A stretch of 64,000 bases of DNA from Haliclystus octoradiatus (taxonomy: Eukaryota; Cnidaria; Staurozoa; Stauromedusae; Haliclystidae), in assembly GCA_916610825.1 (NCBI GenBank), contig OU744453.1, positions 12,419,826 through 12,483,825 on the forward strand, in the 5' to 3' direction. Positions 12,762 through 62,239 of this stretch are shown one piece after another. The notes under the pieces were generated by a model. The model was not told where the DNA came from and did not search any database. It saw nothing but the letters and a program-made list of their open reading frames with translations. Numbering within the stretch: position 1 is the first letter of the stretch; each line of letters opens with the position of its first letter. A program made the position numbers and the translations under genes.

Positions 12762-15700
12762 ATGGATGGTGTACCGTTGATGAATCGCCTTCGTCAGCTC
12801 ATGGTCTTTCTCATTATCACGGTGGTCTGTATGCTACCAAAAGCTATCATGGCAGATAGAACGGTAGGTGACAACATTTTAAATTTATCACGTGTTGAGT
12901 TACTTCGTTAGCAAAACAAATGTAATTATAGCGATTCTTGATTTTCTATCTCATCATTGATTTGATATTGGGGAGGGGGACTTATCATTTAGTAACACCA
13001 CATTGACATGAACAGAGATCTCGCAACGCATAAACATCTGTTTTGAGACAATTTAATATAAATGATTAAATCTGTTTTCATATGTTTTCTTACAAATGAT
13101 ACTTTAAACATTGATCCATTTCACAAATAACCACAGCTAAATATCACTGGATTCCAATCTGTCATCTATTTAATCTACCGCGGCTAAAAAAATTTGCCGC
13201 ATCGCGGTATTGATGACATATGCAATAGTACTAACCCTTTTATCTACGATTCAAGAGGCAGCTGTTGTTTCTTTTTCATTCAATTTATAAATTTTATTTT
13301 TAACTCAAAAACACACATTTGAAAAAGATTGTGTTCTAAATCGTAAGCACTGAAGAACGTTTGGTATGTAGCATATACGCACTTTTGAATCTATTGAAAT
13401 TTAACTCAATAGGAGCGAAAGATTTCTGCCATATCGGTAATCTGACGTCATTTAACTTTAGGGGCAGTTAATTGTTTGCTCTTATTTTGTAGACGCTTCA
13501 GTATTTAAAATAGATTTTAAAAGGAGAGGGTCAAATTGTTTGTGCTTGTCTGACGTGACAGTTTACATGTTAGGTTAGAGAGATTTTTAGTAATGTTTAC
13601 TATATTGAAATCTCTCGTATAAGGTCAATTAAGCAGCCGAGATAGGTTTGCCTGTTGCATAAATGATTATCTTAACTGTAGGTAATGTATATACAGTGGG
13701 TTTTCTCCCAGGGTCACAGCACCGCCTCTTCCTTAACGGGATACGGATTTCTTTCAACGGGGGTTCGTCGGTTGTCATAGTGATAATTTCCAACGGAAAG
13801 GATTCAAGCCATGCAGTTATGATTTAATGCCATGCTGCATGTGTTATGAATCCATAACCCATAATTTTACAATCTTTCTACATAATATTTGGCGCTTCAT
13901 TATTGTGATCAATTGCTTTGTTCCCTGAATAGCTATTCAATTCTTCTTCAAAATTGAGGTTAAGAAACAGATTGAATGGAACCGAATTTGTGCAAAAATT
14001 TCAATAATATATTTTATGTGCTGAGCTACTATAATTTATAAATATACTAGCAAATTACGGTTTTATACCTGCGATTTATATTATCATGGCGATAGAATTA
14101 TCCCGTTGCGGGATATTATTGTACTTGAACCATAGCCAATTGGTTATGTGAAGGACGTTGAAGAGCAATAACAAATAATAGCGGAAATCTAGAACACATA
14201 GCTTCCTTGCTTTTACTATCGTTCAAATGTTAAAGTAAGAGAGAAGAACTCTGTTTAAGAAACAACGGCAAGCGGCAGCCTGAATAACATCAAATTCCGT
14301 GTCTTCCGTTGAAACTCTGATTTTCTCATCCTATATATATACACATTATTTCAGGCATTAATTTACCTTAATTTTTCATCATTTAAAAAGAAATTAATCT
14401 TCATTCATTCATTCATTTAAAAAATTCTATTTTACAGCTATCCATGTGTACGAAAAATTCGCAGTGTGATGTCGGGCAGTGTTGTGCACTGAAGATGACC
14501 TATTCAACTGGTTTTTGCCTAAGACGTAAAGGCCTGGGGGAGGTCTGCAATCCAACAATTGAGGTGAGTTTATTTTACTATAAATCTTACTTTTTATTCT
14601 ACTTCAAAATGTATTTATTACATAGTATAATGTACAATAAAGCTGGAGGTGTGGTATCATCGTCCTGTTTGCTATATAAAATATCCCGCATGCGGTAGAT
14701 CTAGCGATTTTTGTTCCTGAAATCTGCGTGACTGCAAATATGAATGATAACGTTTTTACAAGTGTTCCTTTCCTGTTCATGACCAAGCGATTGCTAAGAC
14801 TGATATAGATTTTTAACGACCCTTATGTACTTGAGCAATATAAATACACCATGTAACACGTAAAAGCGAATTGATTGAGTTATATGGAGGTTTTTACTAT
14901 CGCAGACGACGTTTCACTATTTAAAATTGAGAGAGCAGCTGATATCAATATTCACAAATTGGATTTTACCAAAATATTATTGTTGTGAATAGGGAGAGTA
15001 CAGTTAATCGCGTGAGAAAGGCGTTTTATTACAAAAGCACGCTACTTTTACACAATCATGATAAATCATTGAATAATATTTACCGTCCAAGAATAACCAC
15101 AAGCTCAAATTATCTCACTAGAAAGAGTTCCTGCTTTTATTTATAATTGCGTAAATGTGTGACGTCTGCATCCGTGATACATTTGCCCCTGTTATTGATT
15201 ACCGCGCGGTTAACATCGTCTGACGAAGCGGTCCATTTGATCATTTGGTTTGGCATCGAAGTAAAGACGCCAATTACATCAGCAACATTTGAGCGATGAA
15301 GATATTACTAGCAATTCAAAGCCATGATGAAAGGAATGGTATTTTCGGTTCTGTTTGTAAAATAATATCTATCACGTGCAGTTGAAGTAGAAAAACATAT
15401 TTTCACTTGACGGACATGAGTTAATCATGCATTAAAACTTAAAAGTGATAAATTTTCATTTAATTCTCAATTCCATCAATACAGCTAGGATTAATAGTGG
15501 CATTACACTTGTTGACTACTTGACTACATATGCTATTAAAATGACGCCTTCATTTGACTGTAGTTAAACCCTGCCGTGGATTTGCACTTCTTTCGTTTCA
15601 TGCCGAAGAATTCGTAATCGGCCCACCTTTACTAACATCGTAAAAGCCGTCGGAATCTCTTGGAGGGTTGCTATCATATCAATTGCAAAAATATAAATGT

Positions 15701-16957
15701 ATAAACGTACAGAATAGCAGTTGTTGATTTTATAATTCACTAGGACATATGTATATATTCATGTAGATGATCATAGACCTCAGTCAGTTTCTTTATATTT
15801 CATTACGGATAAAATAATTAATAAGTGTGTGATTTTTATCGGCTAGAATTGATTCTTATAAGATTCCTAGTGCTTCAGCGTTATACTCTCTAAAAATCAA
15901 AACGTCCTCGCCCGTGTACACTGAATGTTACATTGCCATAATTATGTTGAAATTAAAATTAATCACTGTAATTACAATCTATTTCATCAAATTCCAAGAT
16001 ATTTATAATACAAATTTGTTTTATTTAATCGTTAAAGTTTTATTGGACATATATAAAAGAAAGATCTCACAGCCTTCCCGAATGACTTTCTCTATACATA
16101 GCTTGCATTCAGTGATTGATTTATCTACCGTCTTAAAGTGTAAATATATTAAGCATTTGTTGAAAGGGTTCACCTCTTTAAATAATGATTTACTTACGAG
16201 GTGAATAAAAGGGTGCATCTATCATATTCACTATTCCATATTCTATCGATGCTTCTGTTTAAAACATTTGCCGCAGCGAAAGTTCAAGTAAAAGTAGTAA
16301 ACATCTTGATTAATGACATGCATCGATCTGAAACTTGATTGTTTCTACGGACTTATTTTATTTACCAAATTTGTGTATACTTTATACAGATTTCACAAAT
16401 ATTCCTTGCGGTAGTTTTCAGACCGCTTCTTGACTATATTAATGATGTATATAAGAATTGAGATCATTAATTGATTGCTTATTACGCTCGGCATTATTGA
16501 AAAACCAGTATGGCCAACCCTTCAACTATAATAGTATACTGTGCTTGTTTATAATTATGTGAAGTTATCCGACATGTAAATCATTTATATGCAATAGATC
16601 TATTTTGCATGTTTCTTGGTATAAAGACATAAATTATCTCAATATAATTAACGTCCATGTTGATTCTTTGTATTTTAGCTTGGCAAGCAATTCACATGCG
16701 GCTGCTCTATTGGTTTAACATGTGCTATTGTCGAAGAAGACAAACAAAAGAAGCCAAAATATCGTTGTGTAAAAGTACCAACTGAATCTCCTGAGTTTCA
16801 AGAGGCACTTTCAGATAAAACTGACATTGCAGCCGATGCGAAACAATTAAGTCAGATCGGTGAGACGATGATGTCTGCACTGAACGACCTATTACTCAAA
16901 GTTAAATCTACAAAACAAGGTCATAACTATCGTAATCGAGCGAAAGAACCAATTTGA
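12762..16957 (+). CDS. secreted prokineticin/astakine-like ten-cysteine protein, three exons
   Basis: The exons are 12762-12863, 14438-14563 and 16679-16957. Both introns are phase 0 with good sites (ACG|GTAGGT, TTTTACAG, GAG|GTGAGT, TATTTTAG). The product is 168 residues: an N-terminal hydrophobic signal ('MVFLIITVVCMLP') in exon 1, then ten cysteines spaced C-x5-C-x4-CC-x10-C-x9-C in exon 2 and C-x-C-x5-C ... C at the start of exon 3. This spacing is that of the prokineticin/Bv8/astakine (colipase-like) fold. Family members are secreted ligands: vertebrate prokineticins act on G-protein-coupled receptors, and astakines drive haematopoiesis in arthropods. Differences are that the N-terminal AVIT segment needed by vertebrate prokineticins is absent (DRTLSM precedes the first Cys), and a 58-residue charged, helix-prone tail follows the last Cys. 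The start could also be the ATG at 12780 or 12801. The domain call is strong, but orthology is inferred. Confidence 0.85.
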
Positions 16958-24257: not shown

Positions 24258-24324
24258 TTGGCACAGTGGATAGATTTATATATTTTTTTTTTCATGCATA
24301 TATAATCAACCATATTTTTACGTT

Positions 24325-27300
24325 ATGGCAACTTTTCGTGGGCGTCTTCCGCCTGAATTCAATCCTGGTCAACGTGATGCATATGACCGATTTACGAAGT
24401 GGAAATTCGGTTTCCAAACCTATATGACTGCCACCGACTTAGCACTGCAATCAGAAGCAAAGAAGCTTGCTATTCTCTACAACATTGCAGGCGAAGAGTT
24501 CCGGCAATTTACCAAGAAAAACTGTACGTTTAATTTGGCCGACAACACGGAAACTGTCACTAATGTCCTCAAAGGAATAACTAAGATCCTGAAACCACAG
24601 AGACGACATTTGGAATACCGTTGTAAGTTATTTGATTGTCGTCAAAGTGAAGACGAGCCAATACATGAATACTTACAACAATTGAGAAATTTATATGATG
24701 AGACTGGTTACACTGACCGCACCCTAACCGGAGATATGTTAATGCGGGATTTGTTGGTTCGTGGTGTCCGAAACGAAGACGCAAAACGATTATTATTGCA
24801 ACAGGATTTTGACTCTTTAACTATTGACGAATGTACAAAATTAGTCTCAAGTTATGAAACTGTTAATAGATCAGATGCTGTTAAAACAGAGATTATCGCC
24901 GCTACAACTGCAAATAATACAAAGATTATCGATTCATGCAAATATTGTGGACGATCGCACGCTGTTGGACGCTGTCCTGCATATGGGAAATCATGTTCAT
25001 CATGTGGACTTCGTAATCATTTTCACAGCGTTTGTCAGCGTAGTAAATATGCGAATGACAGTGTTAACAAGACAAGGACGCCATCACAGCATAAAGTATC
25101 TGTCAGGCGTAAATCACATCGCTCTGATAAAAGCGCTGCTCTTGACAATGAGGATAACACCTCATCATCGAATGAGTCGGAAATTTCTTTTGCATTAACT
25201 TCCGCTCAGCCAGGTGAGCGTGCTTATGTACATTTATTTGTAAACGGAGACCCTTTGAAATTTTTAATCGATCCTGGAAGTACGGCAACGATGTTACCTG
25301 TAGAATATTTAAAGAAAGGTCAAGAATTTAAAATGTTTACTGACACTTTTGTGAAACCATGGAATAGTAAAAAGATACCTATTATTGCTGAAGGAAAAAT
25401 CAAAGTGTCGGCCTCATCAAGCGACAAGGCAATTTTGATCAAGGCTAAATGTATAAAGAAATTAAAATGTCCTCTGTTGAGTTATTCCGACTATTTATTA
25501 TTAGGAGGACAGCCGTTACAATTACCTGAAGCATACGATGTCAGCGTAAGTGCTGTCGATGAAACGCTAGGAAATATTGGTGTTGCAACAATTAATGTTA
25601 AATCTAATGTTACACCTATTGTTCAAGGTGCACGAAAACTTGCTTTCAGATTACATAAACCAGTTGAAAAAGAAATAGAAAAGATGGTTAAAGCTGATAT
25701 ATTGGAGAGAGTGACTGGCCCTAGTAAATGGTTATCGCCGATTGTTGTCGCTTGGCGAAAAAATGGAAATGTACGTCTTTGCGGCGATTTTAGACGTTTA
25801 AACGAAGCTGTTCAACGAGAACGTTATGCCATTCCAAACGCTGATTCATTTTTCGCTAAGATGTCTGGTTCCAAATACTTTTCCTGTTTGGATTTAGAGT
25901 CCGGGTTTCATCAAATCAAACTCGATGCGGATTCTTCGGAATTAACTACAATCTCAACTCATATTGGAAATTATAAATTTAAACGTTTACCTTTTGGTGT
26001 GAGCTCTGCTCCTGAATTGTTTCAAAGAGTTATGTCAGATCATTTAGTTGATCTTCCTGGATGTCTAGTTTATATCGACGATATAATTATATTTGGCAAA
26101 GACCGTACTGAACATGACGCTCGTCTAAATGCTGTTTTACGACGTTTAAAATCCATTGGGGCAAAATTAAATAAAAAGAAATGTAAATTTGCGCAAGAAC
26201 AGTTGCTTTATCTTGGTCATTCAATTTCTGCTGCTGGTCTGGCTCCAGATCTTACAAAAATTACCGAAGCTTTGGCATTACAACCACCAAAGTCTGTCAC
26301 AGAAGCGCGTCGTTTGTTAGGTATGTTAAACTACTTGCAAAAATTTTTACCTTCATTATCTAACAATTTAAAAGCCATACGAGATATATTGAAGGGCTCA
26401 TATGATCAGAGCGCTATTGATAATTGTTGGGATAAAATGAAGGATGATTTACGATGTGCTGCAACTACTTCGTTTGCATTTTATGATTGTAATGCTACTA
26501 CTGCTGTTTTGTCCGATGCAAGTCCACATGGATTAGGAGCTGTGCTCATGCAATTGCATAACAATGAATGGAAGCCTGTTTTGTGCGCTAGTCGATCCCT
26601 CACCTCCACTGAGCAGAAATACTCGCAGATGGAGCGTGAACTATTATCTATTGTGTTTGGTGCTACTCGTTTCCGACAATCTATTTTGGGTGGTCCTGTA
26701 CAATTTTGGACTGACCATAAACCTTTAGAGTCTATTTGGAAAAAACCATTTGACGATGTTGCCCCTCGTTTACAGCGTATGTTAATGAGATTAGCTTCTT
26801 TTGGGGGCACTATTTGTTATAAACCGGCCCGTGAACAGATGAATACATTAGCAGATACTTTATCTCGTTCACCTATTGCGGATGACACCACTGAATTGTC
26901 TACTAAAGATTATAGTGAAATTGCATCAGTTGTTCTTGATGACGCTACACAATTTCTTACTCCTGAAATTGTGTCTATAAAAGAAGTTTCCCGCGAAACA
27001 GCTGCAAGTAATGCGTTGTCGTTAGTTATCAATTGTTTAGAGACTAGTAATTGGTCTAACTTACCTGAAAATTTGGATTGTTATTTTAAAGAACGTTATT
27101 CATTATCTGTTTCTTCACAGCCACGTTTACTGCTAAGAGGTTCACAGATTGTCATTCCATCTACCTTACGTGAACGTGTTATTTATTCTGCGCACGACAG
27201 TCATGTTGGCTTAAAATCTACATTGTCTAATTTATCATCAGTATGGTGGCCTGGTTTGACCAAAGAAGTAAAAACTGTTATTGAACATTGTGAACAATGT

Positions 27301-28158
27301 AAAGAATTCGATGAACGGTGGCCTAATACTGAGTTAAAGCCATCTGATGTATTACCGCCGTGGCACACTTTAGCCATGGATATTTTCCATGTAGATGGTA
27401 AACCATATTTAAGTATTGTTGATTATGGGTCTCGTTACCCTGAAGTGTTTTCTATAAAACGTGAGAAAACGCCTGATATTTTAGATGCTTTAGAATCTGT
27501 ATTTTGTTCTCATGGTCCGTGTTTAGAGATCATGTCTGATAACGGATCGCAGTTTACGTCTAAGAAGTTTAAGTCATTTTTGTCATCATGGGGCGTTACA
27601 ATTCGACACTCGGCCCCGCGATACCCCAGATCTAATGGGATGGTTGAACGTTTTCACCGGACTTTTAAAAGACGATGGTCTCGTTGTGACGATCTTAGTA
27701 ATAACCAACGTTTACGTCACGTTTTATTTATTATGCGTACTTCTCATCATCGTATGATCGGTACATCGCCTTTGCATGCTTTGACAGGTCGACGTCCTAT
27801 AACGGCAATTCCTGCTTTATTTTCATCAAAAGCTGTAAATGTAGATAGTCAATTAAAAGCTAAGTTAGCAATGAAAAAATATCACGATAGCGGTAATAAT
27901 ATTAGTAATGTACCTATTCCCAATGACGGGGAAAGAGTTTTATTTAGACATGGTAACAATAATGTCCGTGGTATTGCAGTAAGTTCGTCTGAAGACCGTA
28001 CAACAATTTCAACAGATTCCGGTCAGCAACTTGTGAGGGCTAGGTCTCATGTGAGACCAACCTCAAGATTTAATAATAATGATAATGTACATACACGATC
28101 TGGACGAGTTAGTAAACCGCCTGTGCGTTTTGATCCATCCGATCCTTCTACACATTAA
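24325..28158 (+). CDS. Ty3/gypsy gag-pol polyprotein (single fused frame)
   Basis: 1277 residues encoding the replication and integration proteins of the element. The order is Gag (about 1-200), two zinc knuckles (205-237, C-x2-C-x3-H-x4-C and C-x2-C-x4-H-x4-C), aspartic protease with Asp316 in 'LIDPGST', reverse transcriptase with 'LPFGVSSAP' and the YIDD box at 583-586, RNase H ('LSDASPHG', Asp731), integrase with an N-terminal His2Cys2 finger ('HDSHVG...CEQC') and a DD35E triad (Asp1019, Asp1072, Glu1108), and a short basic C-terminus. The protease active site reads D-P-G-S where D-S/T-G is usual. Gag and Pol share one frame with no shift or stop, so another way of setting their ratio must exist. 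I see no env frame. Confidence 0.95.
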   Translation: MATFRGRLPPEFNPGQRDAYDRFTKWKFGFQTYMTATDLALQSEAKKLAILYNIAGEEFRQFTKKNCTFNLADNTETVTNVLKGITKILKPQRRHLEYRCKLFDCRQSEDEPIHEYLQQLRNLYDETGYTDRTLTGDMLMRDLLVRGVRNEDAKRLLLQQDFDSLTIDECTKLVSSYETVNRSDAVKTEIIAATTANNTKIIDSCKYCGRSHAVGRCPAYGKSCSSCGLRNHFHSVCQRSKYANDSVNKTRTPSQHKVSVRRKSHRSDKSAALDNEDNTSSSNESEISFALTSAQPGERAYVHLFVNGDPLKFLIDPGSTATMLPVEYLKKGQEFKMFTDTFVKPWNSKKIPIIAEGKIKVSASSSDKAILIKAKCIKKLKCPLLSYSDYLLLGGQPLQLPEAYDVSVSAVDETLGNIGVATINVKSNVTPIVQGARKLAFRLHKPVEKEIEKMVKADILERVTGPSKWLSPIVVAWRKNGNVRLCGDFRRLNEAVQRERYAIPNADSFFAKMSGSKYFSCLDLESGFHQIKLDADSSELTTISTHIGNYKFKRLPFGVSSAPELFQRVMSDHLVDLPGCLVYIDDIIIFGKDRTEHDARLNAVLRRLKSIGAKLNKKKCKFAQEQLLYLGHSISAAGLAPDLTKITEALALQPPKSVTEARRLLGMLNYLQKFLPSLSNNLKAIRDILKGSYDQSAIDNCWDKMKDDLRCAATTSFAFYDCNATTAVLSDASPHGLGAVLMQLHNNEWKPVLCASRSLTSTEQKYSQMERELLSIVFGATRFRQSILGGPVQFWTDHKPLESIWKKPFDDVAPRLQRMLMRLASFGGTICYKPAREQMNTLADTLSRSPIADDTTELSTKDYSEIASVVLDDATQFLTPEIVSIKEVSRETAASNALSLVINCLETSNWSNLPENLDCYFKERYSLSVSSQPRLLLRGSQIVIPSTLRERVIYSAHDSHVGLKSTLSNLSSVWWPGLTKEVKTVIEHCEQCKEFDERWPNTELKPSDVLPPWHTLAMDIFHVDGKPYLSIVDYGSRYPEVFSIKREKTPDILDALESVFCSHGPCLEIMSDNGSQFTSKKFKSFLSSWGVTIRHSAPRYPRSNGMVERFHRTFKRRWSRCDDLSNNQRLRHVLFIMRTSHHRMIGTSPLHALTGRRPITAIPALFSSKAVNVDSQLKAKLAMKKYHDSGNNISNVPIPNDGERVLFRHGNNNVRGIAVSSSEDRTTISTDSGQQLVRARSHVRPTSRFNNNDNVHTRSGRVSKPPVRFDPSDPSTH

Positions 28159-30103: not shown

Positions 30104-33100
30104 ATGCCAGGAATTCAGTTAGAAAGAGAGCTAAGGAAACTAAAAAGATTGGAGATCATAAGGGGAGCACATAAGCACATAAGGCTCAAGAAGAAGTAGA
30201 GCAGGCCTTCTCCGAGGATCTTGATGTTGACACATTAAATTATCTATGGGATATAATGCACAAACATGTGGAGAACTTGAAAGTTGTTGTGGAAAGTTAT
30301 GTTGAATCAGCTTTACACGTAGAGCCGGTAGAGGCAATAGATGAAGATGAAGCCATATTATATGAGACCACAATTGACAACTTGAGATCTCCAGTAACTT
30401 TGTCTAGAACAAAGATTGCAAGAATGATGAAGATTGTGGAAGATCATGCTAAAAAATTAGATACTCAAATGGAGATAGTAGATCAAGATATGGATTCCAA
30501 TAAAGAGAAGGACAATGATCTAAATTTAATGGAACTTGAGTAATCAATCAATGAGATAGGACATATAGAAGGAAACACAGATTCTGCCTCAGCCATTATA
30601 GTAGAGTCTCAAAGCACCGTAGCTGTCAGTGATATCAGTGTGGCATTAGAAAAGCTGACAGACATTGTATCAAATCAAAAAGAAGTAAATGAGCTCAATC
30701 AAAAACTTTTTGCAGAATTATCTAAAGGAAAAAAGCCTGATAATGCAGGTGTTCGCCTTGGAGCTATACAACCAGACGCCTGGAATGGGAATCTCAAGGA
30801 TTATTTTTGCTGGAAAACAGTATTTATAGAGACACTAAATGCAGCAAAACAAATAGATCCATCAATATACAAGACATATTTGTTTAAGGGCGTTGCCTGA
30901 TAATTATCAGGAAGATGCCAGAGTTAGCAGCAACATACAAGAAGCATTTGAAAAGATTGAAATCAGAATCAATAACAATACGGTGTACAAAGTCATTATC
31001 AACTATTTTGAAAAATTACCACAAGCAGAAAGGTTTAATGAAGCAATTGTTATCATGGCTACTCAGATCGAAAGACTAGACAAGAGCCTTACTATTCAGC
31101 ATTTGGCTAGGCACATGAGAAACATTTCAAAATCTTTACCATCCAAATACGATAAAGTACCAACGAAAACGGCAACAGGAAAGAAGGGAGTAATTAGCTC
31201 TATGTCAAGTAATGATGATTGTATGTGCAAAATGTATTGTAGCGGTTTAGCAAAATGTCCACTGTTTAAGGAAAAATCCATCGCAGAATGACGAAATTTT
31301 GCTGCAGAAGAAGGAAGTTGTTACAATTGTCTGGGTAAAGATCATTAAGCAAGAAGATGCCAGATCAAGAAAAAATGTGCGAAATGCAATAAAAGACACC
31401 ATGATTTATTATATATTGAAAGCAAATGTGAATCAGCTGAAAAGTCAACAACAAAAATCACTAAAAAGAAGCAGACAAACCCCAGAGTGAGGTCACTTCA
31501 AAATCAAATTCCATATTGAAAGAAGGGATAAGGCTACCGGTATTAGTAGCAGAAATTGAAGACAGTGATGGTGATTGGCACGCGATAAGGTGCTTAATTG
31601 ATTCTGGTTATACAACATCGCTGATACGAACAGAGCTGGTAAAGGTGTTAGGCTTGTCTGGAGAAAAGGTAGAAATCAAGTACGAAGTTGTTGGTGGCGA
31701 AAAGAAGAAAGAAAAAACTAAAACATTCACTGCGCAAATTAAGAACCCTGATGGTAGCTACGAGAGAGATATTCAATTACATGGCATTGGTAAGCCATGC
31801 GGTTCAGCGCCAAAGCTTGCAAGGGGATTCTTTGATGAACATGAACATTTACAACCTATTCAATCAATGTTAGATGTAGATGGAGGATGTATAGATGTTT
31901 TGATTGGACAAGACATTGGTTTCTTACTGAAATAACTGGCAAGTCTATCAACTTGTGAAAAATCTCCTAGAGGAGTATAATACCCTCTAGGGTGGACAGT
32001 TGTGGGAGAGGTTCAAATAGATAGTAATCAATTAAATCTATTTCTTGGCTTAAAAAGAATCAACGTTCTAGAGGCTGTCATAGATGACACAGAAAAAGAA
32101 TTAAGAAGGCTGATGTTATCTGACCAGATTGGAATTAAGCCTACTAAGCTTTGTGCATGTTCCAAAAAACAATTTGATGAAGCAAAATTTATTGAACATG
32201 TGAACAAGCACACCAGGATGGCTGATGGTCACATAGTAGTAAAACTATCATGAAAAGAAGGGTATCCAAGTGCTATAGTCAACAACCGGCAACAAGCAAT
32301 TCATTCATTGGAGAGACTAGAGAAAAGATTAAAAAGGAATGCATCGTTAGAAGCATTTGATAAACAAGTGAATGAACCAATTGAATAATCATTTATTAAA
32401 GAAATTACTCCAGGAAATGAAAATGCATTTTACTTAGATATCCATCCTGTTTACAGAGAAGATAGTGCTTCAACACCACTTCGCATTGTCCATAATGCAG
32501 CGATGCCTATTCGTCCAGTAGTAACATACAATGACTGTTTTGAAAAGGGACCCGATTATAATAATCAGCTGTTTGGGGTTCTGATGAGATGGCGAGAAGA
32601 CAGAGTGGCAATTCATGATGACATTTCAAAAATGTTCAATCGAATCTTTGTAGAAGAGGAGGATCAACCATACCAACGTATTCTTTGGAGAGGGTGTGAC
32701 GCCAGCCAATCAGTCCCAACTTGGCAGCAAGCTCAATCAATCAGATACCTGGGTAACCTATGTAGAGAGGAATTGCAAATTGCAAGTGATGTCCTGAAAT
32801 CAGACATTTACGTTGATGATATTGCAACCTCGTTCAAAGATGTACAACAAGGAAAGCAAGCCATAAGGGAAATAAATTCAATTCTCCAACATGGTGAAAA
32901 AATGGCACTCCAATAGGAAAATGCTATAGAAGCAGATGAAGACAGCGAAACACATATCGACATATTGGGCCATGAGTGGAATAAGGAAGAAGATACCATG
33001 AAGCTGAAGATACAAGAAGGAAATAATATACTAGCCTTCACAAAGAGAAGTATTTTGAATGGAATTACCTGATTCTGGGATCCAATGGGTCTTGTGTCTG

Positions 33101-35256
33101 CTGCTCTGATTGGCATGCAAATTGAGTTTCAGAAGTTGTGGGAGCGAGGCATCAAATTGAATGACGTATTGTCAAAAGAAGAGGAGGCAAGATGGAAAAA
33201 GATGTTCAAATAATTAGCACCCCTACAAAAAGCAGTTGCAAATAGATGTTTGAAACCAGAAGGAGCGAAAGATCCCCCACAACTTCATGCGTTTTCAGAT
33301 GGGAGATTAGACGCTTATGGAGCAGTGGTGTATCTGAGATGGGAAATGAATGATGGATTCTTTCAAATAGTCTATGTTGCAGCCAAGGCATTGGTCACAC
33401 CTCTGAGAATGAAAAGCATCCCGAATTTAGAGTTAGTTGGAATCATGATCAGATTGGTGGATGCAATCACAAAGTCTTTGAGGATGAATCTAGAGAGGGT
33501 TAAGTGTTGGAGTGACTCCTTAACAGCTCTGAGATGGGTCCAAGCAAGTTCAACAAAGTTCAAAGCTTTTGTACAATCAATAGTGTCTGAAATACAAGAG
33601 ACACTCTCACCAAGTATATTTCGACATGTTCCTGGAGAATCGAACCCAGCAGACGAATTAGCAAAAGAAAATACAGCTGAAGAGGTCACAGAGTGGCAGA
33701 AAGGTCCAGCAATAAGAAAGAAGAAGAAGAAGACAATTATGCAAAAGTACGTGGCCAAAGTGGCAACGAGGCAAAATGATGAAGAAACGTTCATGAACAA
33801 TAAAGTTTTGGGAGTTGCAGAGACGAAGGTGACATGGCGTGAAGCAATAGAAGCAGTGGAAACAGAGTTTGGCAAACAAGAGAGCCCGGAAACCCTTATT
33901 TTAAGAGAAATTCAAGAAAATGTCAACTTCAAAGATAAAAAACTGAGAAAATTATGTTCAACATATGACACATCAGATAAGATTTACAGAGTTGGAGGTC
34001 GATTAGGGAAAGTGACGTGGCTGCCTAAATAAGTTGTGGCTCCAGTGATTGTACCTAAAGGCACAATTGCAAGACTCATTGAAACACACTATCATAAAAA
34101 CTCCGGACATGGAGGAATGAGAAGAGCGCATGCAGAAGTTGTAACAAGTGGGTAGTGGGTATTGGATAATCAGTGTAACAAGAACTCTGAATTCGGTACA
34201 ACAGAAATGTCTTCAATGCAGAGTGATGAAACGACCACTTTTAGAACAAAAGATGGGAGAATTACCAACATTTCGAATGCTTAAAGATCAAACACCATTT
34301 GAAGCCATAGCAGCAGATTGCTTTGGGCCACTCCAAGTGAAGTTATACAGAAATAGAAACATATCTGGACACGTGGTGATCTTCACCTGCCTAACGAGTC
34401 GAGCTATTCATCTTGAACTAATCTATGATCAAGTTGGAGGGGGAGTTGGTTTAACTACTGAAAAATTATTGCTAGCCTTCTGGAGATTTGTAGTAGTCAG
34501 GAGAAACAGGTCTGGGACAATTTATACTGATGGTGGACCAAATTTAGTTGGAGCAGAGCCTATATGGAAAGAGATCACTAATAATTGGCAGGAAATAATG
34601 CAGACTAAGGAGATGAAGACAAAAGGATTGGTATGGATTTGGTACCCATCAAAAGCGTCACATATGAACGGTGCAGTTGAGTCGTTGATAAAAAGTGTAC
34701 GAAAAGCACTAGAAATCGTCATGGCTGAAAACAGCTGAATCCTTACACCAGATGAATGGACTACAGTTTGTACAAAGTAACGTAGTTGGTCAATTCCTGG
34801 CCATTATTTCCATGTAACTCGGAAGACCTATTACACGAAGCTGGGTTTATTACACCAAATAGCATTTTGCATGGAAGTAACCTTGTTGTAGATCAACCTA
34901 TTGCAAAGGAGTCAGTCAATCCTAGGAATCGAATGGATGTAATCCAAAGAAAAGTACATTTATTTTGGAAGCAATGGACTAAGTATATACCTCAGCAATT
35001 GAACATCAGAAATCGATGGTTCCGAACAAGAGAAAATCTTATACGAGGAGATTTTGATATTGAACTCAGAAAAAGCGTCAATGGCTTAGCTCCCAGAGCA
35101 ACATGGGAAGTGGCTACAGTTATTGAAAAATCTACAAGAGATGATGGTTTGGTGCGCAAGGTGAAGATCAGAACAAAGAAAGATGATTATGAAAGGCCAA
35201 TCAATAAATTAGCGTTGATCGCTACGGCTGAAGAACTTGAAGAAGACCAAAGTTAA
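30104..35256 (+). pseudogene. BEL/Pao gag-pol polyprotein, interrupted
   Basis: In order: a charged gag segment (30256-30543), a gag domain with 'AWNG.LKDYFCWKTVFIET' (30640-30900), a zinc knuckle around 31317-31420 ('CYNCLGKDH'), protease ('CLIDSGYTTSL', 31516-31935), reverse transcriptase ('DISKMFNRI', then 'YVDD' at 32809-32820), RNase H ('AFSDGRLDAYG', about 33290) and integrase ('IAADCFGP' about 34311, 'IYTDGGPN' about 34522, 'NGAVESLIKSVRKAL' about 34669). A C-terminal basic domain ends at 35256. Many in-frame stops (for example at 30541, 31291, 32251, 34030, 34736) and shifts separate the pieces. BEL/Pao is recognised from the protease and integrase motifs. Confidence 0.85.
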
Positions 35257-49356: not shown

Positions 49357-50132
49357 ATGAGGTTATATCTGGTTTTGGTGATAACCGTGTTGGTCATTGA
49401 ATTATTTTCACAAGAGGTTGAATCGCAAGGATGTGGGGCTCTCAGATTCAGAGGATGCAAGAAGACTGCGAATTCAAATTTTGCAAGAAAGGTACTGATC
49501 ATATTCCATTCCTAGGTTAATCAAAGACCCTCACTCAACTGTCTTGATTACAAGCAGGTGTTGGAAATCAATTTGTTTTCAGAAGTGGATTTATTTGTAA
49601 CTTCTTGCGGAAAATTTAATGTATAGGTCGATGTATAGAGCTTAAATTCTAGCATTTGAAGTGCCATCAAATTGGTCCTTGGGCTGGGTAGGCATATGAT
49701 TTTTCAATATATTTATAAGGGAACATGCCCTCTTGTTAGTGCATCTACTATCATTAGCAATACATTACTGAATACTGATACATAATTGTATTGAAAAGAA
49801 GTGCAGTGCAAGGAAGCAAGTGATTTAATCATAGCCTTTCTGATTTAAAGTATTTTATTTTTAAATAATTTTTCAATTTTTACATAATATTTTCAAATTT
49901 TTTAATTATTCAGAAATCATCCAATCAACAAATTAATGATCAGGAATTTGAGGAATATAACATAATTGAAGAAACAGATTCCCCTACAGAAGATCATGAA
50001 TATCTTGATTTTGAAAACAAATCATCTTACGGAGAGGAAAATACAGACACAGAGGTTGACAGCACATCGTCATACGAGGAAGAAAATAGTGACAGAGAAC
50101 TTGTTGATTGGTTAAATAATTTCAAATATTAA
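49357..50132 (+). CDS. secreted cysteine-loop peptide precursor, gene A (two exons)
   Basis: The exons are 49357-49491 and 49914-50132, joined in phase 0 (AAG|GTACTG ... TTATTCAG|AAA), giving a 117-residue product. Residues 1-23 are a signal peptide ('LYLVLVITVLVIELF', predicted cut at VES|Q). The next block is QGCGALRFRGCKK (24-36), followed by a basic stretch to residue 45. Exon 2 (72 residues) is strongly acidic, with runs of Glu/Asp and no Cys. If processed at Lys-Lys, the product would be an N-terminal pyroglutamate peptide closed by a Cys26-Cys34 bridge; if not, a cationic peptide of about 22 residues. Signal peptide, basic peptide, then anionic tail is the layout of known ascidian antimicrobial peptide precursors, while a Cys-loop peptide directly after the signal recalls vasopressin-type hormones. 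I recognise no described family. Gene B encodes a close relative of the peptide. Confidence 0.75.
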
Positions 50133-50152
50133 ATAATGATGTAATAATCCAC

Positions 50153-50158
50153 AATAAA
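50153..50158 (+). terminator. polyadenylation signal of gene A
   Basis: AATAAA lies 21 bases after the gene A stop codon, supporting 49914-50132 as the terminal exon. Confidence 0.6.
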
Positions 50159-51200
50159 TTAACTTACAATCCATATGTATCATAGTAAAATTAGTTATAA
50201 GAATCAAATAACTAGGTGAATATATTTTGAACTAAATAATATTATAATCAATACAAGGTTGTTAATTTGTTATTTTATGTAGCTTGGTATGCATAATACT
50301 GGTGCGTAGTCTATAAAAGCAGAATGCAACAATAGTATGATAGATAGATATAATATTGACCATTTTATAAAACACAATATCAGATGAATTACGTGATACT
50401 CAATTCTGATTGACTTTCACTTCTGTGTGATGCCGATATTGATGGTTAGGAAAGTGATATAAAGTATATAAACGCTTTCTAATCATGAAAATGAAGCTTA
50501 GCCAGTCAACAGTTCTGTATAATCACCGGGAAATCATTCTAATCATACGTATATCATCTCAATTTACAAAGAGTTTTTATTTTATTCATATTATATTAAC
50601 GCATTTGTTACCAAATATATACTATAATCTGTTTTTTGCCTCTCACCTATCTCAAGTGACCATACATTAGCATTAACCACTTTAACCTGTTTTTACGACC
50701 ACCCTATTGTTAATGACCATGTCATTATTTCTCTAGAATACTCACCTGCCTATATCTTCAGTGATGTAATTTATTAGAAGCTATACATAATTCAACGAAG
50801 CTATTTAAATGATGATTCAAGTCAGTATACAATCTATACTTGGAGGATACAGATGATCAATGGTACGAAGATTATAATAATATCTTCAACATATAAATGA
50901 CTTGATAATCTAAGAATTAATTCAAAAATACGATTATAGATCCAAGATCAATGGTAGCTCAACAATAGACCTGCGCCACATGCCCCTGTACTTCACTTTA
51001 CCTGCAATCGCTTCATATAGGATGTAGCGGAATAGTTGACCTTGTAGGGTTAGGCTAGCTCAAGAAGCAGTCAATCTGAAGATACAATTACAGCCCCAAA
51101 ACATAGTTGTGACGAAGCTTTAACTCAGCAGGTCATTCCTTATTCAGATTCACAAAGTACCACTCATCTTGACGTCAGCGCACAATCTCCTAAAATACGT
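50159..51200. other. intergenic stretch, nothing recognised
   Basis: AT-rich DNA without a supportable feature. Confidence 0.45.
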
Positions 51201-51500
51201 ACTATTTCTGGGAACTGGACTAGTCTAAGTGAAGCTGAACGTCCCTTTGTGCGTTGAACCAAAATCTCAACATACACAATGATATAATCAATTTCTGTTC
51301 TCTTGCTTTTATTGGCCTTTTTCCAAAGTCATTACGCAGGTCAATCCTTGAAAGAGCACATTCTACCCATCAGTGTATACATTCCGCCCAATGTTTTTTT
51401 GCTAAAAGTGTTTGGTGGCCAGGCAAGGCTAGTGACATAGACCGCTATGTATCTTTTGGAAAGTAATCAAATTGGCAATGCCCCTGTATATTCAAATTTA
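51200..51500 (+). pseudogene. gypsy-type integrase zinc-finger relic
   Basis: The frame reads 'LFPKSLRRSILERAHSTHQCI' and 'VWWPGKASDIDRYVSF', the His2Cys2 region at the start of Ty3/gypsy integrases. A stop lies near 51256, and the second Cys pair is lost. It is unlike the intact element at 24099-28457 in detail, so it is a separate old insertion. Confidence 0.6.
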
Positions 51501-52400
51501 GCGGAGGGACAAACAGTTAGGACTTGCCCCTCGCCTGGTGCATCATCATCCATCAGTAGCCTTGACCCAGCTGCTGCCAACATATCTCAACCTCATTTAT
51601 CAATATTACTGTACTTTTATCGAGAATTGCTAATTATCCAAGTCGTTTCCGTTATCGTGATAGATAAATAAATAAATGATAAATAAATGATACATAAATG
51701 ATAAATAAATAAACAATTTATTTAATTCTAAGTAAAAGGAAGTTGTTGTTTTAGGTAACTATATTACTGTAATCAAATTTGTATTGGTTGCTTTATGTTA
51801 GCCTCGCGTTCGTGTAGTATATATATACGTGACTGTTTTTGATTAAAATATACAAGATTCTATCATGTCTCGTGTTATAGCCATTTCGCATACTTTCATT
51901 TTCCTATGACAGTAAACACTACTCTACTAATTTGGCCTTTCCCCTATGACTTTTATTTGCAGTTTCTCCCTGGCTATAGAGAAAGACCTTTTCTTCTTGA
52001 CTTCGTACAGATATATGGCCGATTTGCTGTACCAAGTTTTAATGCAGTCAGATATGACCCCGATATGATCGATTTTCTATAGCTGATGGCTGAATTGTCA
52101 CAAAATAATTATCCATGATGGTAGATCGTAGAGAATTTTCAGAAAAAAACCATTATTCAACTGTTATTTAATTATATTCTAGAAATTAATCTAAATAATT
52201 TATAATTTTACAGGCTTTATACATTTGTAATGCTTTAATAATTTTCTTTATCTCTTTGCATATTTGTAAGTTAAATTCAGATGAAAAATGTTTACATTGG
52301 ACTTTAACAATACTCTGTTGTAAATAGTATACATGTAACATCATTCCATGGTATATTTATGGTTTGTTCAATTTATCTTTGCATTTCAAGTAATACATTA

Positions 52401-52688
52401 TCATGATAGCAATTCTGATAGTAAATCTTCTTCGATACGTTCAATTTCCTTTTTTCTGATTTCTTCTCTCGATTTTCCTCTTGCCAAATTCAACCTGAAT
52501 GTATTTTTCCTCTGAGAATCAAGAACAAATGGAAAGTTATTACATATACTCTGCTTGCATTTCATTTTCAAATCGGGTGTATCGAATTTTGTTGCCAAGG
52601 CAGTGTTACCATTACCATCCTTCAGCAAGTAGGTCAGTTTGCCGAAAATACTATACATGTCTGCATAACTCAAAACTGATAAGTCAAA
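52401..52688 (-). CDS. unassigned 3' exon candidate (possible second exon of gene B)
   Basis: Read on the minus strand, a frame open from 52688 to the stop at 52401 gives 95 residues, with a highly charged end ('KSREEIRKKEIERIEEDLL') and two Cys ('KCKQSIC'). It is the most credible coding stretch on this strand below gene B. An AG at 52690-52689 would put it in phase 0 with the gene B donor (intron about 1.8 kb), but the pyrimidine tract there is poor. Better acceptors nearby (TATCAG, ATGCAG) are in another phase. I do not recognise the protein. No canonical AATAAA follows closely. Confidence 0.3.
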   Translation of the reverse strand, partial: FDLSVLSYADMYSIFGKLTYLLKDGNGNTALATKFDTPDLKMKCKQSICNNFPFVLDSQRKNTFRLNLARGKSREEIRKKEIERIEEDLLSELLS

Positions 52689-54210
52689 CTTATTATTGCG
52701 CGAGTGACAGCATATGTAGGGTAATTTCTTTTATCTATACTGCCATGGATCTTTGATGAGAGTATAAAAAAGATCAGGAGATTCCCAATTACGTAAGTTA
52801 TATTCTGATATAGCCAGCAATGTTGACAGTATCGCCCTATCTAATTAGGCTATTGTACCAGAACCATCTATTTACAAGATTTGGGACACTCTTTCGTGTG
52901 CCGCTCTCAGCTCCAATTGGAAAGATGCCAGTGACGTGATTTTATGGACGCCATTTTTGTTCCGTCGAATCCAGACTTACGAAATTTGAACAAAGCGAGC
53001 GAAAATAATACCGTGAAAATCGAAAAAACGTTTTGTTCAAAAGTAAAAACTTGTTTTCAATGGAACGAAAATGGCGTTCTTCGAGCCCCCAAAGTTGCGT
53101 GTCCAAACATTTGTAAATAGATGACTTTGTACCGTACCACTCGTATGGTTAGTAGAAAATGATCGCTTTTAGAGTGATGATTATACAGCAAATGCTCAGT
53201 ACTGATACAAATTATATCATGTTCATAAATGAATACAAATAATCTATAGGGCCTACCATACTGATTATTATTAAACCTTTCCAATAGTCTATATAGATAT
53301 GATTGGTTGAAATTTTTCACGCTATAATAATGGTACATACATTACCCTGTAAAAGGATATCAGTTTTTCATTAATTATCAAATAGACCAGATGTTTATAA
53401 TAACCAGTAAAACCATTTGCGTAATTAAAATCAAGAGAGATATATAATAATCTTTAATTAGGCCATTCAATGAAGAATCAATTTAATCCACTGAATCTCC
53501 TATCAGATGGGATCGATCCGCTTGTGGCTCACGATATCATTTATTACCATTGTATGTAATGATTGAAATTTCATCATTAAGCGATCTCCAAGGGAGAGTT
53601 TTCAGTTTGTATCTATACAGGTGTTGTTGATATTTTATCCTTGGGGATTTTTCATGCACAGCATAATATATATATATATATATGAGAAATTTCCTTAAGA
53701 CCCCGACACCAATGCATGCGTCTGATTATGTAGGTAGTTCAATATTATGTTAATGCTACATAACGTATTTTATGCATGATGTATTATGGTTAAATGAAAA
53801 AGGAAGATATATTGATGATGAATAATGCAGAATCATTCATAAATTATCAGAGAAAGTATATTTGGATTAATTGAATGTATTCGACAACAATAACTTTGAA
53901 CAGAGAAAAATGGGTGAGGTCAAAATATACTTTCAAATACCTCCTTAAAAATCATTTATAAGAAAATAACTTATTATGTTATAAATCCTCTATAATTACC
54001 CTTTATTACTACTGATATTAACTTTCCCTTGAATTTTAATAATCAATTCTTTGAAAGAAAGTTGTTTCTAATTTTAACGATTGTATTTATAAATAAATGA
54101 TGATCATGATACATAGTTTTCTAATACCGTAATCTTTATTTTACTTTCAAAAAAATGTTACGTTACTGAATAATGTGAATATATATATATAAGGTTGTTA
54201 TTTAAGAAAA

Positions 54211-54478
54211 GTGGTCCCAAACATAATTATGAATCAGTATTCTACAGATTTTTAACATCTGAAAACCTACTGAATAGGCTACTGAATTATAGCTTCTCTT
54301 AGCTTTCAAATTTTAAGGTGCGATTCAGTAGTTTTTCAGTAGAATGAAAAGATCCTAGATATATTTAAGTGTCTGGTGAACTTCAGCATGGTTTCAGAAC
54401 CCAATCTCATTCCAGGTTTTCTAGAAGGTTTTCAGTAGCGATTCAGTATTTCCAAGATTCATAGTGGTATGATCCCAT
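54211..54478. mobile_element. MITE-like element in the gene B intron
   Basis: The approximate inverted ends are 'GTGGTCCCAAACATAATTATGAATC' and, on the opposite strand, 'AATGGGATCATACCACTATGAATC'. The interior repeats 'ATTCAGTAG/CTACTGAAT' blocks in both orientations. No coding. It lies directly after the splice donor of gene B. Confidence 0.4.
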
Positions 54479-54498
54479 TATTAACAGTGTGTACTCAC

Positions 54499-54627
54499 CC
54501 CTTGTACAGATTTCTTACATCCACGGTACCGCATTGTGCATCCTTGAGCTTCAACAGATGCATCTAATAGACAGTTCGCAATCAATATAATCATTACAAG
54601 AGACGTTAAAGATAAATGACTAGCCAT
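54499..54627 (-). CDS. secreted cysteine-loop peptide precursor, gene B, first exon
   Basis: The ATG is at 54627, with 43 codons to a phase-0 donor (CAAGGG|GTGAGT, GT at 54498-54497). The first 27 residues are a signal peptide ('LTSLVMIILIANCLL', cut predicted at VEA|Q), followed at once by QGCTMRYRGCKK (28-39) and SVQG. It matches gene A: Gln-Gly-Cys, a loop of six (A: seven) residues ending Arg-aromatic-Arg-Gly, Cys, Lys-Lys, and the same exon end and phase. A TATA box stands about 105 bases upstream. The second exon is not certain; the best candidate is 52688-52401. Two independent signal peptides ending exactly before QGC argue that this is coding and not chance. Confidence 0.65.
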
Positions 54628-54732: not shown

Positions 54733-54739
54733 GTTTATA
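54733..54739 (-). promoter_or_regulatory. TATA box of gene B
   Basis: TATAAAC reads on the minus strand from 54739 to 54733. Transcription would start near 54708, about 80 bases before the ATG. A CACGTG E-box lies at 54771-54776. Confidence 0.5.
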
Positions 54740-56050: not shown

Positions 56051-56321
56051 CGACCCTTGCAAAAAGAACTGCAGATACGCTATCACTGCGCCTTGTCACG
56101 GAAAACCTGCAATGAATATCAGCTGGATTTGAATATGGGAGTGGTCAACTATTTCTGTTTCTTCTTGTTAGCTCTAAAACCATAGCAATTTTTAAAAACA
56201 ATATAGATAATATTGATTTATCACGTTTTTGCAAAATTTTTAAATAGTATAATCATTAATCATGTAACTGTTAAATAAATTTTTTATAACTTCAAAGTTT
56301 TTTCGAGGCTGAATGTAAGAA

Positions 56322-56531
56322 TGTGTGTATGTATGTATGTATGTATGTATGTATGTATGTATGTATGTATGTATGTATGTATGTATGTATGTATGTATGT
56401 ATGTATGTATGTATGTATGTATGTATGTATGTATGTATGTATGTATGTATGTATGTATGTATGTATGTATGTATGTATGTATGTATGTATGTATGTATGT
56501 ATGTATGTATGTATGTATGGCTGTATGTATG
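56322..56531. repeat. (ATGT)n microsatellite, about 210 bp
   Basis: More than 50 near-perfect copies of ATGT, broken once by GGCTGT near 56519. Long open frames in several phases across it are artefacts of the repeat. Confidence 0.95.
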
Positions 56532-56532
56532 T

Positions 56533-56626
56533 GAGAATGGAATTGTTTCAAATTCCCTATATTTGCCTGTCAAAATTCTCATTTTTATTTTTGACAAAAT
56601 AAATCAATCAATCAGTCAATCAATAT
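56533..56626 (+). mobile_element. short LINE/SINE 3' tail with (AATC)n
   Basis: A short segment ending 'TTGACAAAATAAATCAATCAATCAGTCAATCAAT' in a tetranucleotide tail, typical of a 3' end of a non-LTR element. Nothing coding remains. Confidence 0.4.
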
Positions 56627-57043
56627 TAAAAGGGGGATTTTATATCTGAGAAAATTTCAGAAAAAATATACAATTAAAAAGGTTTGAAATATATTTTGTT
56701 TACAGAGCATTTGACGTACAGAGCGTTTGATCAATGTTATGATTTGATAAATTTTTAAGATTTCTTCTTTGCTGCTTTTGAAATGCTGCTTTTAAATGGA
56801 CTTTTGTTGTAGGGTAACATGCTATATATGTATATAAGAATGTTGCCATTCTTATGATATCTGTATAGTTCGACTGTGAGCGCATCACATAGTTTGTAGC
56901 ATAAATGATCCTTCAGCTAAATTTTATTGGCATAAAAATCTTCATAATTATTATTACATGCAAGATATAATCACATATTTTGCGCATAGAATTTTAATTA
57001 ATTGTAATATAAATCACAGTGAAGATTGACATGGATCAGATTA

Positions 57044-60600: not shown

Positions 60601-62239
60601 AACGGTTAATATTGCTAAGTCTCAATTGATTATATCCCCATATCTTGTCTGCTCAAATCACAAGACTTAACTCACTCTGAAACTGAAAACCAGTTACAGT
60701 TATTAAAACTTTATATACTTTTTGATTTTTATGAAATTTAAAATTATTGTCTTTAAATTTGTTTTATTGGAGAATAGATGAGTAATAAATGTTTTCATGT
60801 ATACAGAAATATATTGCTGCAATTACAAGGAGCAAAGTTAAATTTATGCTATTGCATTGGCCTATTTCGACTCAATTATATATTTTAGCCAATTGATCAT
60901 TGCTTAAACCATGATCAAACTCAAATTTATGTCGTAATGATGCTATCATCATTCCCGTTCTGATAACGGATTATGTTAATAATGATAACGTCCAACTTTT
61001 CCCAGACTTCACTCGTTAACTCATATCGCTAAAATCGATGTCGTCCACTTAAAACAGATTTTTAAAATACAAGGCTGCATCATGGTTGCATTTAGTTGAT
61101 TATATTCTTAGTTCTGGAATCTCTTATTAATTTCTTAAACATTTTTCGTGGCGGCATTCTTGATTAAAAGCTGTGCGTAAATCATTGAGTAAGTCCTTCA
61201 AATCTCTTGGGCAGTGTGTTCAATCTACTCATACGAATGCTGATATAAATTATAATATAACGTTGAAATATAACGTTAATGTGAAACTCCGAGTAACGGA
61301 AAAAGGCTTTGCCTCATCTCTGTCTCTTATTATATAATGCTCTGTTTTAACCAACATTAAACACTTTCATATTACATGTGATTTGAGTTCACTCATTTTA
61401 ATTTATTTCTTTAATATATTATTATTATAATATAACGTTGTCAAGGTGGTAGTTAACCGTTGTGGAAATTAAATGACAAAATAGTAATTAGATTTCACTG
61501 TTGAATAGGTATGCCAACCAATAAGAGAAGGAAACAGCCATCCGTTGTATAGGACGGACTTTCGTTGGCGTTTAACGGACGTCAAGCTATTGCGAATAAT
61601 TATATACCAGATTTCCGTCAAACTAACTGAAATAACGTTCAAGTCAAAACATTATCACAAAGAACAATAGCTAAAGAATAAACTAATGTTTACAGGTACC
61701 GAATTTGGAAACGAAACATAGAGCTTTTAATTTCCATTATTGTCAAGTTTTAAAAGACAATACGTCAAATAATGAAGCAGAGAAATATTAAAAGAAGGCA
61801 AAACTTCCCTCGCGATCGTAAAGTAACATGAAAACTATTTAAATGATCCGATGAAATCAACTTTTAAGGCAAAAACACGACCTAGAAATAACAACACTGA
61901 GGAACGCTTTGAAGTGGTGATCAGGTTAAGTTTCTATGGCAACGACTCCATCTGATCCATGCCGCTGTCTTGCCAACAAAACATTAAGTAATAATAAATG
62001 CTCAACATTTGGCAATGAAAATGTTTATCTTTCAGCTGAAATTTTCATCTTACCTCTTTCTTTCCCCTACACATGGACCATCTCCAGAAACTACACGTTG
62101 AACCCCATTGTCTTTTTTGTCTATTTAAAGTCTTTTTCTCAGCAATTGGTTTCGCCATAGTCAAAGATATTAATTGCAAAATTACTAACATTAGAATACC
62201 GGCTGATGCTAGCCTGTTAGAATATTCCAACGAGACCAT
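57611..62239 (-). CDS. secreted Trp-rich cyclic peptide precursor, gene C (two exons proposed)
   Basis: Exon 1 is 62239-62054: 62 residues with a signal peptide ('GILMLVILQLISLTMA'), a short spacer, RQKR (40-43), the block QWGSTCSFWRWSMCRG and then KK, ending at a strong phase-0 donor (GAG|GTAAGA). This predicts pyroglutamate at Gln44, a Cys49-Cys57 bridge around SFWRWSM, and C-terminal amidation of Arg58 from Gly59 before Lys-Lys. The Phe-Trp-Arg core inside a ring recalls the Phe-Trp-Lys of somatostatin and urotensin II, but the rest differs. The proposed terminal exon 58090-57611 starts after TTATTTCTAG, is in phase 0, gives 159 hydrophilic residues ending in a Glu-rich part, and is followed by AATAAA. 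Joining the two across 4 kb is inferred; a further exon may lie between. Exon 1 alone is well supported. Confidence 0.6.
58846..58947. repeat. 51-bp tandem duplication in the gene C intron
   Basis: 'TTCAATCTAGTTGGTTTAAA...ACCAACCAG' occurs twice back to back with no difference that I can see, implying a recent event. Confidence 0.85.
58948..60143. other. proposed gene C intron, nothing else recognised
   Basis: A 70-codon minus-strand open stretch at 59885-59673 has no splice support and no recognisable motif. Confidence 0.4.
60144..60456. mobile_element. MITE of the 'GGGGTAACTTCCAT' family, inverted copy
   Basis: It lies in the opposite orientation to 46349-46674. It starts 'CACCCGGGGTGTTCGTTCCATACTTTAG' and ends 'GAACGACCCCGTCCGGTGAAGCACAATGAAAG', which on the other strand matches 'CTTCCATTGCGCTTCGACGGGGTCGTTC'. 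It sits in the proposed gene C intron. Confidence 0.6.
61255..61350 (+). repeat. Penelope-type end with decayed hammerhead-like motif
   Basis: 'GTGAAACTCCGAGTAACGG' (61281-61299) and 'GTCTCTTATTATATAATGCTCTG' match the ends at 421-475 and 10823-10875. The CTGATGA core is disrupted, so it should not fold as a ribozyme. Confidence 0.45.

What the first reader, a model, noticed from the sequence alone, without database searches (positions are those of the whole stretch)
49357..54627. A new-looking family of secreted peptides with a Gln-Gly-Cys ... Arg-(Phe/Tyr)-Arg-Gly-Cys-Lys-Lys core
Genes A (+) and B (-), 4.4 kb apart, each encode a signal peptide whose predicted cut falls exactly before QGC, then a two-Cys loop ending Arg-aromatic-Arg-Gly-Cys-Lys-Lys, and both end the exon at a phase-0 donor. 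The signal peptides differ widely while the peptide core is kept, which is what selection on a mature peptide produces. Seen directly: sequence, splice sites and TATA box (B). Inferred: pyroglutamate, disulphide, dibasic cleavage and a common origin by duplication and inversion. I cannot name a described family.
Basis: partly seen in the sequence, partly recalled or inferred. Interest (0 to 1): 0.85.

Follow-up and report, generated by a model that had tools for sequence, protein, structure and literature searches.

The report
Three clustered cyclic-peptide genes, stalked jellyfish
A stalked jellyfish chromosome carries two sister genes, and a third of the same layout nearby, that look built to release small ring-shaped secreted peptides for which no described relative was found, most likely chemical messengers.

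Summary
The two exons are there as described, except that they lie 5.0 kb apart, not 4.4. In the 262-Mb genome the degenerate DNA pattern for R-[FY]-R-G-C-K-K occurs at these two places only, and each first exon finds itself and the other and nothing else at E 10 or less. New here: a predicted phase-0 second exon for each gene (precursors of 117 and 79 aa), and a third gene, C (62239-57611, minus), with the same plan: signal peptide, N-terminal Gln, one Cys ring, dibasic site, phase-0 donor, hydrophilic tail exon. Its predicted product is pQWGSTCSFWRWSMCR-amide. A and B are paralogues. C is tied to them by layout and position and to B by a weak exon-2 similarity; its ring does not align with theirs. 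A and B had no homologue in the protein database search; A, B and C none in Pfam, PDB sequences or the literature strings searched (C was not searched in the protein database). Best reading: single-copy prohormones for cyclic signalling peptides. Defence or venom use is not excluded. Expression, disulphide, pyroglutamate and cleavage are untested.

The parts
49357..49491 (+). Gene A exon 1: signal peptide (1-23 by the reading adopted), then QGCGALRFRGC-KK-TANSNFARK; phase-0 donor AAG|GTACTG
   Evidence: only A and B in the genome
49914..50132 (+). Gene A exon 2 (predicted): 72-codon acidic tail (23 D/E, 4 K/R) plus stop TAA; acceptor TTATTCAG, phase 0; makes RK|K at the junction
   Evidence: 0 of 3000 null sequences gave an acceptor within 422 nt with a phase-0 ORF of at least 72 codons and at least 30% D/E (acidity cut set after seeing the tail); length alone 1.8%
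50153..50158 (+). AATAAA, 20 nt after the stop of A
50011..50100 (+). Two 45-nt direct repeats (71% identical) inside the tail of A
54499..54627 (-). Gene B exon 1: signal peptide (1-27 by the reading adopted), then QGCTMRYRGC-KK-SVQG; phase-0 donor GGG|GTGAGT
52401..52511 (-). Gene B exon 2 (predicted, least certain): RKNTFRLNLARGKSREEIRKKEIERIEEDLLSELLS plus stop; acceptor TTGATTCTCAG, phase 0; makes G|RK at the junction; no AATAAA within 200 nt after the stop
   Evidence: by length alone weak (null 11%); resembles the tail of C (18 and 12 of 10000 shuffles reach the score)
54734..54739 (-). TATAAA, 112 nt before the ATG of B
54242..54484 (.). Dispersed repeat inside intron 1 of B; the matches begin 15 nt after the exon at the earliest, mostly 26-36 nt; 40 of 903 first-look candidates scored, B itself included
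62054..62239 (-). Gene C exon 1: signal peptide (about 1-29), KPIAEKKTLNRQKR, then QWGSTCSFWRWSMCR-GKK-E; phase-0 donor GAG|GTAAGA
   Evidence: only match to itself in the genome
57611..58090 (-). Gene C exon 2 (predicted): 159-codon hydrophilic tail plus stop TGA; acceptor TTACTTATTTCTAG, phase 0; AATAAA at 57582-57577, 28 nt after the stop
   Evidence: (1 of 1500 nulls); only match to itself in the genome
62342..62347 (-). TATAAA, 108 nt before the ATG of C

Best explanation
A, B and C are two-exon genes for single-copy peptide prohormones of a stalked jellyfish. Exon 1 carries the signal peptide and the whole active peptide; exon 2 carries a disposable hydrophilic tail. In A and B the signal peptidase cut itself exposes the Gln, which cyclises to pyroglutamate; in C a Lys-Arg cut does so. 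The two Cys close a ring of 6-7 residues that shows a charged-aromatic face (RFR, RYR, or FWRW). A convertase cuts at KK (A, B) or GKK (C, which would be amidated), giving pQGCGALRFRGC, pQGCTMRYRGC and pQWGSTCSFWRWSMCR-amide, or slightly longer forms. The peptides are released as signals, most likely to G-protein-coupled receptors. A and B arose by local duplication and now lie tail to tail; C is probably an older member of the same cluster. Shown: reading frames, splice-site-like boundaries, rarity in the genome, A/B paralogy. Inferred: transcription, all processing steps, signalling role, kinship of C.
For: Two genome-wide matches only, 5 kb apart. Core kept through synonymous change while the signal peptides drifted. 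All three exons pass a joint test that 60 x 164 kb of Markov sequence never passed. In-phase second exons: C in 1 of 1500 nulls, A in 0 of 3000 with acidity counted and 1.8% by length alone; B leans on its likeness to the tail of C. Dibasic sites follow the ring in all three and fall at the exon junction in A and B. TATA boxes at -112 (B) and -108 (C); AATAAA 20 and 28 nt after the stops of A and C. The same genome has the known RPRSamide prohormone, so prohormone processing exists in this animal.
Against: No transcript or peptide was seen. No relative in another species was found; no named cnidarian genome was open to search. The prohormones found in Staurozoa by the published script are multi-copy and amidated (PMC6909153, section 10); A has no amidation Gly, and B has one only at GRK further on (a bioactive non-amidated peptide has been reported in Hydra, PMC12440616, passages). 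A's donor is weak and A has no TATA box at the B/C distance. B's second exon is not beyond chance by length (11%) and has no AATAAA in the 200 nt after its stop. The signal-peptide cut is not unique by rule. The ring of C does not align with A or B (568 and 1552 of 2000 shuffles reach the scores).
Confidence: 0.52

Rival explanations
1. They are defence or venom peptides: small cationic rings (bactenecin-like in size, recalled) released into mucus or nematocysts, with the acidic tail of A shielding the charge until cleavage.
For: The peptide part of A and B is purely basic (6 K/R and 4 K/R, no D/E) and the tail of A is strongly acidic. Drifting signal peptides and local duplication also occur in toxins and antimicrobial peptides (recalled).
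Against: The tail of B is not acidic overall (10 K/R, 8 D/E). Two or three copies only, no expansion. The core is conserved between A and B. A Gln start and a GKK amidation site (C) are hormone-like, though not exclusive.
Confidence: 0.27
2. A and B are one new peptide family, but C is an unrelated single-copy cyclic prohormone that only happens to lie nearby (compatible with either reading of function, so not exclusive of them).
For: The C ring does not align with A or B, and the signal peptides do not either. The C search finds only C.
Against: Same exon plan and phase; the 3 of 3 such exons found in 164 kb lie within 13 kb; B and C tails resemble each other.
Confidence: 0.4
3. Chance or decayed open frames: one or both are pseudogenes or accidental ORFs.
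For: No transcript evidence; weak donor in A; the exon 2 of B is not beyond chance by length.
Against: The core is conserved against the nucleotide changes, the genome-wide pattern is at these two places only, and the frames are intact.
Confidence: 0.06

Closest known systems
CxxxMCWFRamide cyclic peptides of Scyphozoa and Cubozoa (PMC6909153, passages)
   Same: Jellyfish peptides, presumed single cystine ring, basic-aromatic residues
   Different: Several similar copies per precursor, 4 residues between the Cys with WFRamide outside the ring, not found in Staurozoa by those authors
GPPCRWGCamide of hydrozoan RWGamide precursors (PMC8638164, passage)
   Same: Predicted cystine ring holding Arg-aromatic
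   Different: 3 residues between the Cys, inside a multi-peptide amidated precursor
Staurozoan RPRSamide, pQFLRGRFamide and pQPPGAWamide prohormones (PMC6909153, section 10)
   Same: Same class of animals; Gln-start peptides in the last two
   Different: Many linear amidated copies per precursor; here one cyclic copy near the N-terminus
Melanin-concentrating hormone type (PMC4772807, section 12)
   Same: One Cys ring, basic residue penultimate to the second Cys (A and B)
   Different: MCH sits at the C-terminus of its precursor and has Met/Ile after the first Cys; neither holds here
Somatostatin / urotensin-II type (recalled, no call)
   Same: FWRW in the ring of C recalls the Trp-Lys core
   Different: Ring of 7, not 10 or 4 residues; peptide lies near the N-terminus, not at the C-terminus; no sequence comparison was run

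Membership tests
Peptide prohormones in general | Signal peptide followed by a short peptide bounded by convertase sites | tested here: met
   (by rule, no SignalP; the exact cut is not unique by rule)
Peptide prohormones in general | Expression in neurons or endocrine cells and a receptor | not testable with these tools
   no RNA or receptor data held
Cnidarian amidated prohormones as defined by the published script | At least three similar copies each followed by GR/GK sites | tested here: not met
   One copy per precursor; criterion seen in passages of PMC6909153 and PMC7523074
Cyclic CxxxMCWFRamide peptides | Four residues between the Cys, WFRamide after the ring | tested here: not met
   7, 6 and 7 residues between the Cys, no WFR after the ring
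Melanin-concentrating hormone type | Peptide at the C-terminal end of the precursor | tested here: not met
   Peptide directly after the predicted signal peptide; features read in PMC4772807 section 12
Melanin-concentrating hormone type | Basic residue penultimate to the second Cys | tested here: met
   RGC in A and B; not in C (SMC)
Any Pfam family | Score above the curated cut-off | tested here: not met
   A: one sub-threshold hit (Unpaired, E 0.028); B and C: none at E<=1
A/B family (defined here) | QGC-x(6-7)-CKK with R-[FY]-R-G before the second Cys | tested here: met
   A and B meet it; C does not

The most novel reading that the evidence does not exclude
A, B and C are surviving members of an old cluster of single-copy cyclic prohormones in Staurozoa, in which exon 1 carries an interchangeable ring peptide and exon 2 a related tail. 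This would be a class of cnidarian signalling peptides that the published script (three or more similar repeats before processing sites) cannot see.
Probability: 0.3. Interest if true: 0.7.

Novelty: new variant of a known kind. Interest (0 to 1): 0.5.

Why it matters
The survey that covered Staurozoa reported three prohormone genes there, all with numerous linear copies, using a script that demands three or more repeats (PMC6909153, passages and section 10). If the genes here are expressed, stalked jellyfish add cyclic single-copy messengers of the sort familiar in vertebrates and insects, and similar precursors may have been passed over in other Cnidaria. The precursors give exact peptides to synthesise and test on orphan receptors.

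Tried and rejected
Pfam, PDB sequences (one chance-level hit for A, E 4.7) and literature strings gave nothing relevant. Kinship to MCH was considered for the R-aromatic-R-G-C ring and rejected on precursor layout. Somatostatin/urotensin kinship for C was thought of and not claimed. Transposon origin: the DNA of A had one match, itself, at E<=0.001 (the tool skips very common words, so this is not proof of rarity); the repeat at B lies in its intron. Kinship of the A tail with the B or C tails was tested and not found. DNA comparison of the A and B regions showed only short weak matches: the best, E 0.002 over 32 nt in opposite orientation, lies in the intron of A; 17 nt over the V-E-x-Q-G-C codons score E 0.84. 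Coding-potential training on host GPCR exons failed because the family search did not complete. The first B acceptor null (3%) used a stricter cut (0.8) than B meets (0.76); the corrected one (11%) is. Observed counts for M-anchored patterns count overlapping starts.
Full report
What and where. The window is contig C10, 12419826-12483825, of a 261,861,806-base assembly in 33 contigs. C10 is 20,733,292 bases, C1 39,977,743 and C5 28,991,210: exactly the N90, longest and N50 chromosome lengths printed for Haliclystus octoradiatus jrHalOcto1.1, where chromosome 8 (OU744453.1) is 20.73 Mb with GC 33.8% (window 33.9%) and there are 33 scaffolds (PMC9975415, first of two parts of the text read; its total, 261,898,343, differs by 0.014%). 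A 327-aa open frame with 16 RPRS copies, 15 of them before GKR or GRR, the staurozoan neuropeptide (15 copies in H. auricula, 16 in H. sanjuanensis per PMC6909153, section 10), agrees with the class.

The observation. Both exons are there as described: A MRLYLVLVITVLVIELFSQEVES|QGCGALRFRGCKKTANSNFARK and B MASHLSLTSLVMIILIANCLLDASVEA|QGCTMRYRGCKKSVQG, each ending at a phase-0 GT. The gap between them is 5007 nt. Chance is made very unlikely by Markov simulations and by the whole-genome pattern (2 hits, control 1). The first exons find only each other in 262 Mb (E 0.066 and 0.044): weak scores taken alone, but the sole other hit lies 5 kb away. The exact signal-peptide cut is a prediction; the rule allows other cuts, and the case for QGC rests on V-E-[SA]|QGC being shared by A and B.

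Selection. In the 12 aligned core codons there are 14 nucleotide differences, yet 9 residues are identical, with synonymous changes at both Arg, both Cys and one Lys codon. Placing 14 differences at random keeps 9 or more residues with P 2e-5 (from A) or 5e-6 (from B); this is conditional on the pair having been noticed for its likeness. The A and B peptide parts score beyond all of 2000 shuffles; their signal peptides do not (554 of 2000).

Second exons. A: 49914-50132, acidic, with AATAAA 20 nt after the stop; no null sequence of 3000 reproduced acceptor, length and acidity together, while length alone came up in 1.8%. B: 52511-52401; length alone comes up in 11% of 1500 nulls and no AATAAA follows within 200 nt. 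C: 58090-57611; 1 of 1500 nulls, AATAAA 28 nt after the stop. Junctions make RK|K in A and G|RK in B. The tail of B resembles that of C (2 of 2000 shuffles, one of nine comparisons; 18 and 12 of 10000); that of A resembles neither. The tails of A and C match only themselves in the genome at E<=10; the B query, which included 51 residues upstream of the predicted exon, had one further hit at chance level (E 2.05).

The third gene. Reading the rest of the window I found exon 62239-62054 (minus): signal peptide, KPIAEKKTLNRQKR, then QWGSTCSFWRWSMCRGKKE and a strong phase-0 donor. A scan of 164 kb (window plus 50 kb on each side) for signal + Cys ring + dibasic found three exons, A, B and C, all within 12.9 kb; a looser scan found five, the other two without this look. 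TATA boxes stand at -112 in B and -108 in C. The C ring does not align with A or B, so C is a probable, not a proven, relative.

Mechanism. The layout is that of a prohormone: secretion, Gln exposed at the new N-terminus, ring closure, dibasic cleavage, tail discarded. Signalling is favoured over defence because the ring is conserved between paralogues, copy number is low, C carries an amidation site, and the B tail is not acidic. None of this shows where the peptides act.

Known families. Cystine-ring peptides of Scyphozoa/Cubozoa (CxxxMCWFRamide; passages) and Hydrozoa (GPPCRWGCamide; passage) differ in ring size, copy number and position. MCH type fails on precursor position (section 12 read). 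The strings QGC and RGC do not occur in the main texts of PMC6909153, PMC7523074, PMC8638164 and PMC11087051; PMC9545775 and PMC12440616 were searched for QGC only, none. Of these papers I saw passages, and of PMC6909153 also section 10. Library-wide searches for the core strings found nothing relevant (listings only). Supplementary files were not open to me, so peptides listed only there could have been missed. The published script demands three or more repeats (passages), so single-copy precursors like these would escape it.

Noticed in passing
14387-14695 and 16679-16954 (+): Cys-rich frames like a prokineticin/astakine-type secreted protein: the first alone hits PF06607 at E 0.003, below the curated cut-off; joining the two pieces did not improve it (E 0.077).
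   Followed up: partly
24274-28155 (+): A 1294-residue open frame with reverse transcriptase, RNase H and integrase domains: a retroelement frame.
   Followed up: partly
30175-35253 (+): Several separate open frames that look like a Pao/BEL-type element; only 33214-34029 was checked (Peptidase_A17).
   Followed up: no
54242-54484: Roughly 210-230-bp dispersed repeat inside the intron of B; 903 first-look candidates genome-wide, 40 scored.
   Followed up: partly
45246 (-): Short frame MIDYTETIHLLFVCLLLFAIVNAIPKLKQS with a signal-peptide-like start; one of 31 starts that my crude scan listed in the window.
   Followed up: no
56243-56646: Long tetranucleotide microsatellite, open in several frames.
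   Followed up: no
L005 1078-2061 (-): RPRSamide prohormone of this species: 16 RPRS copies, 15 before GKR or GRR, one with EKR in place of GKR.
   Followed up: yes
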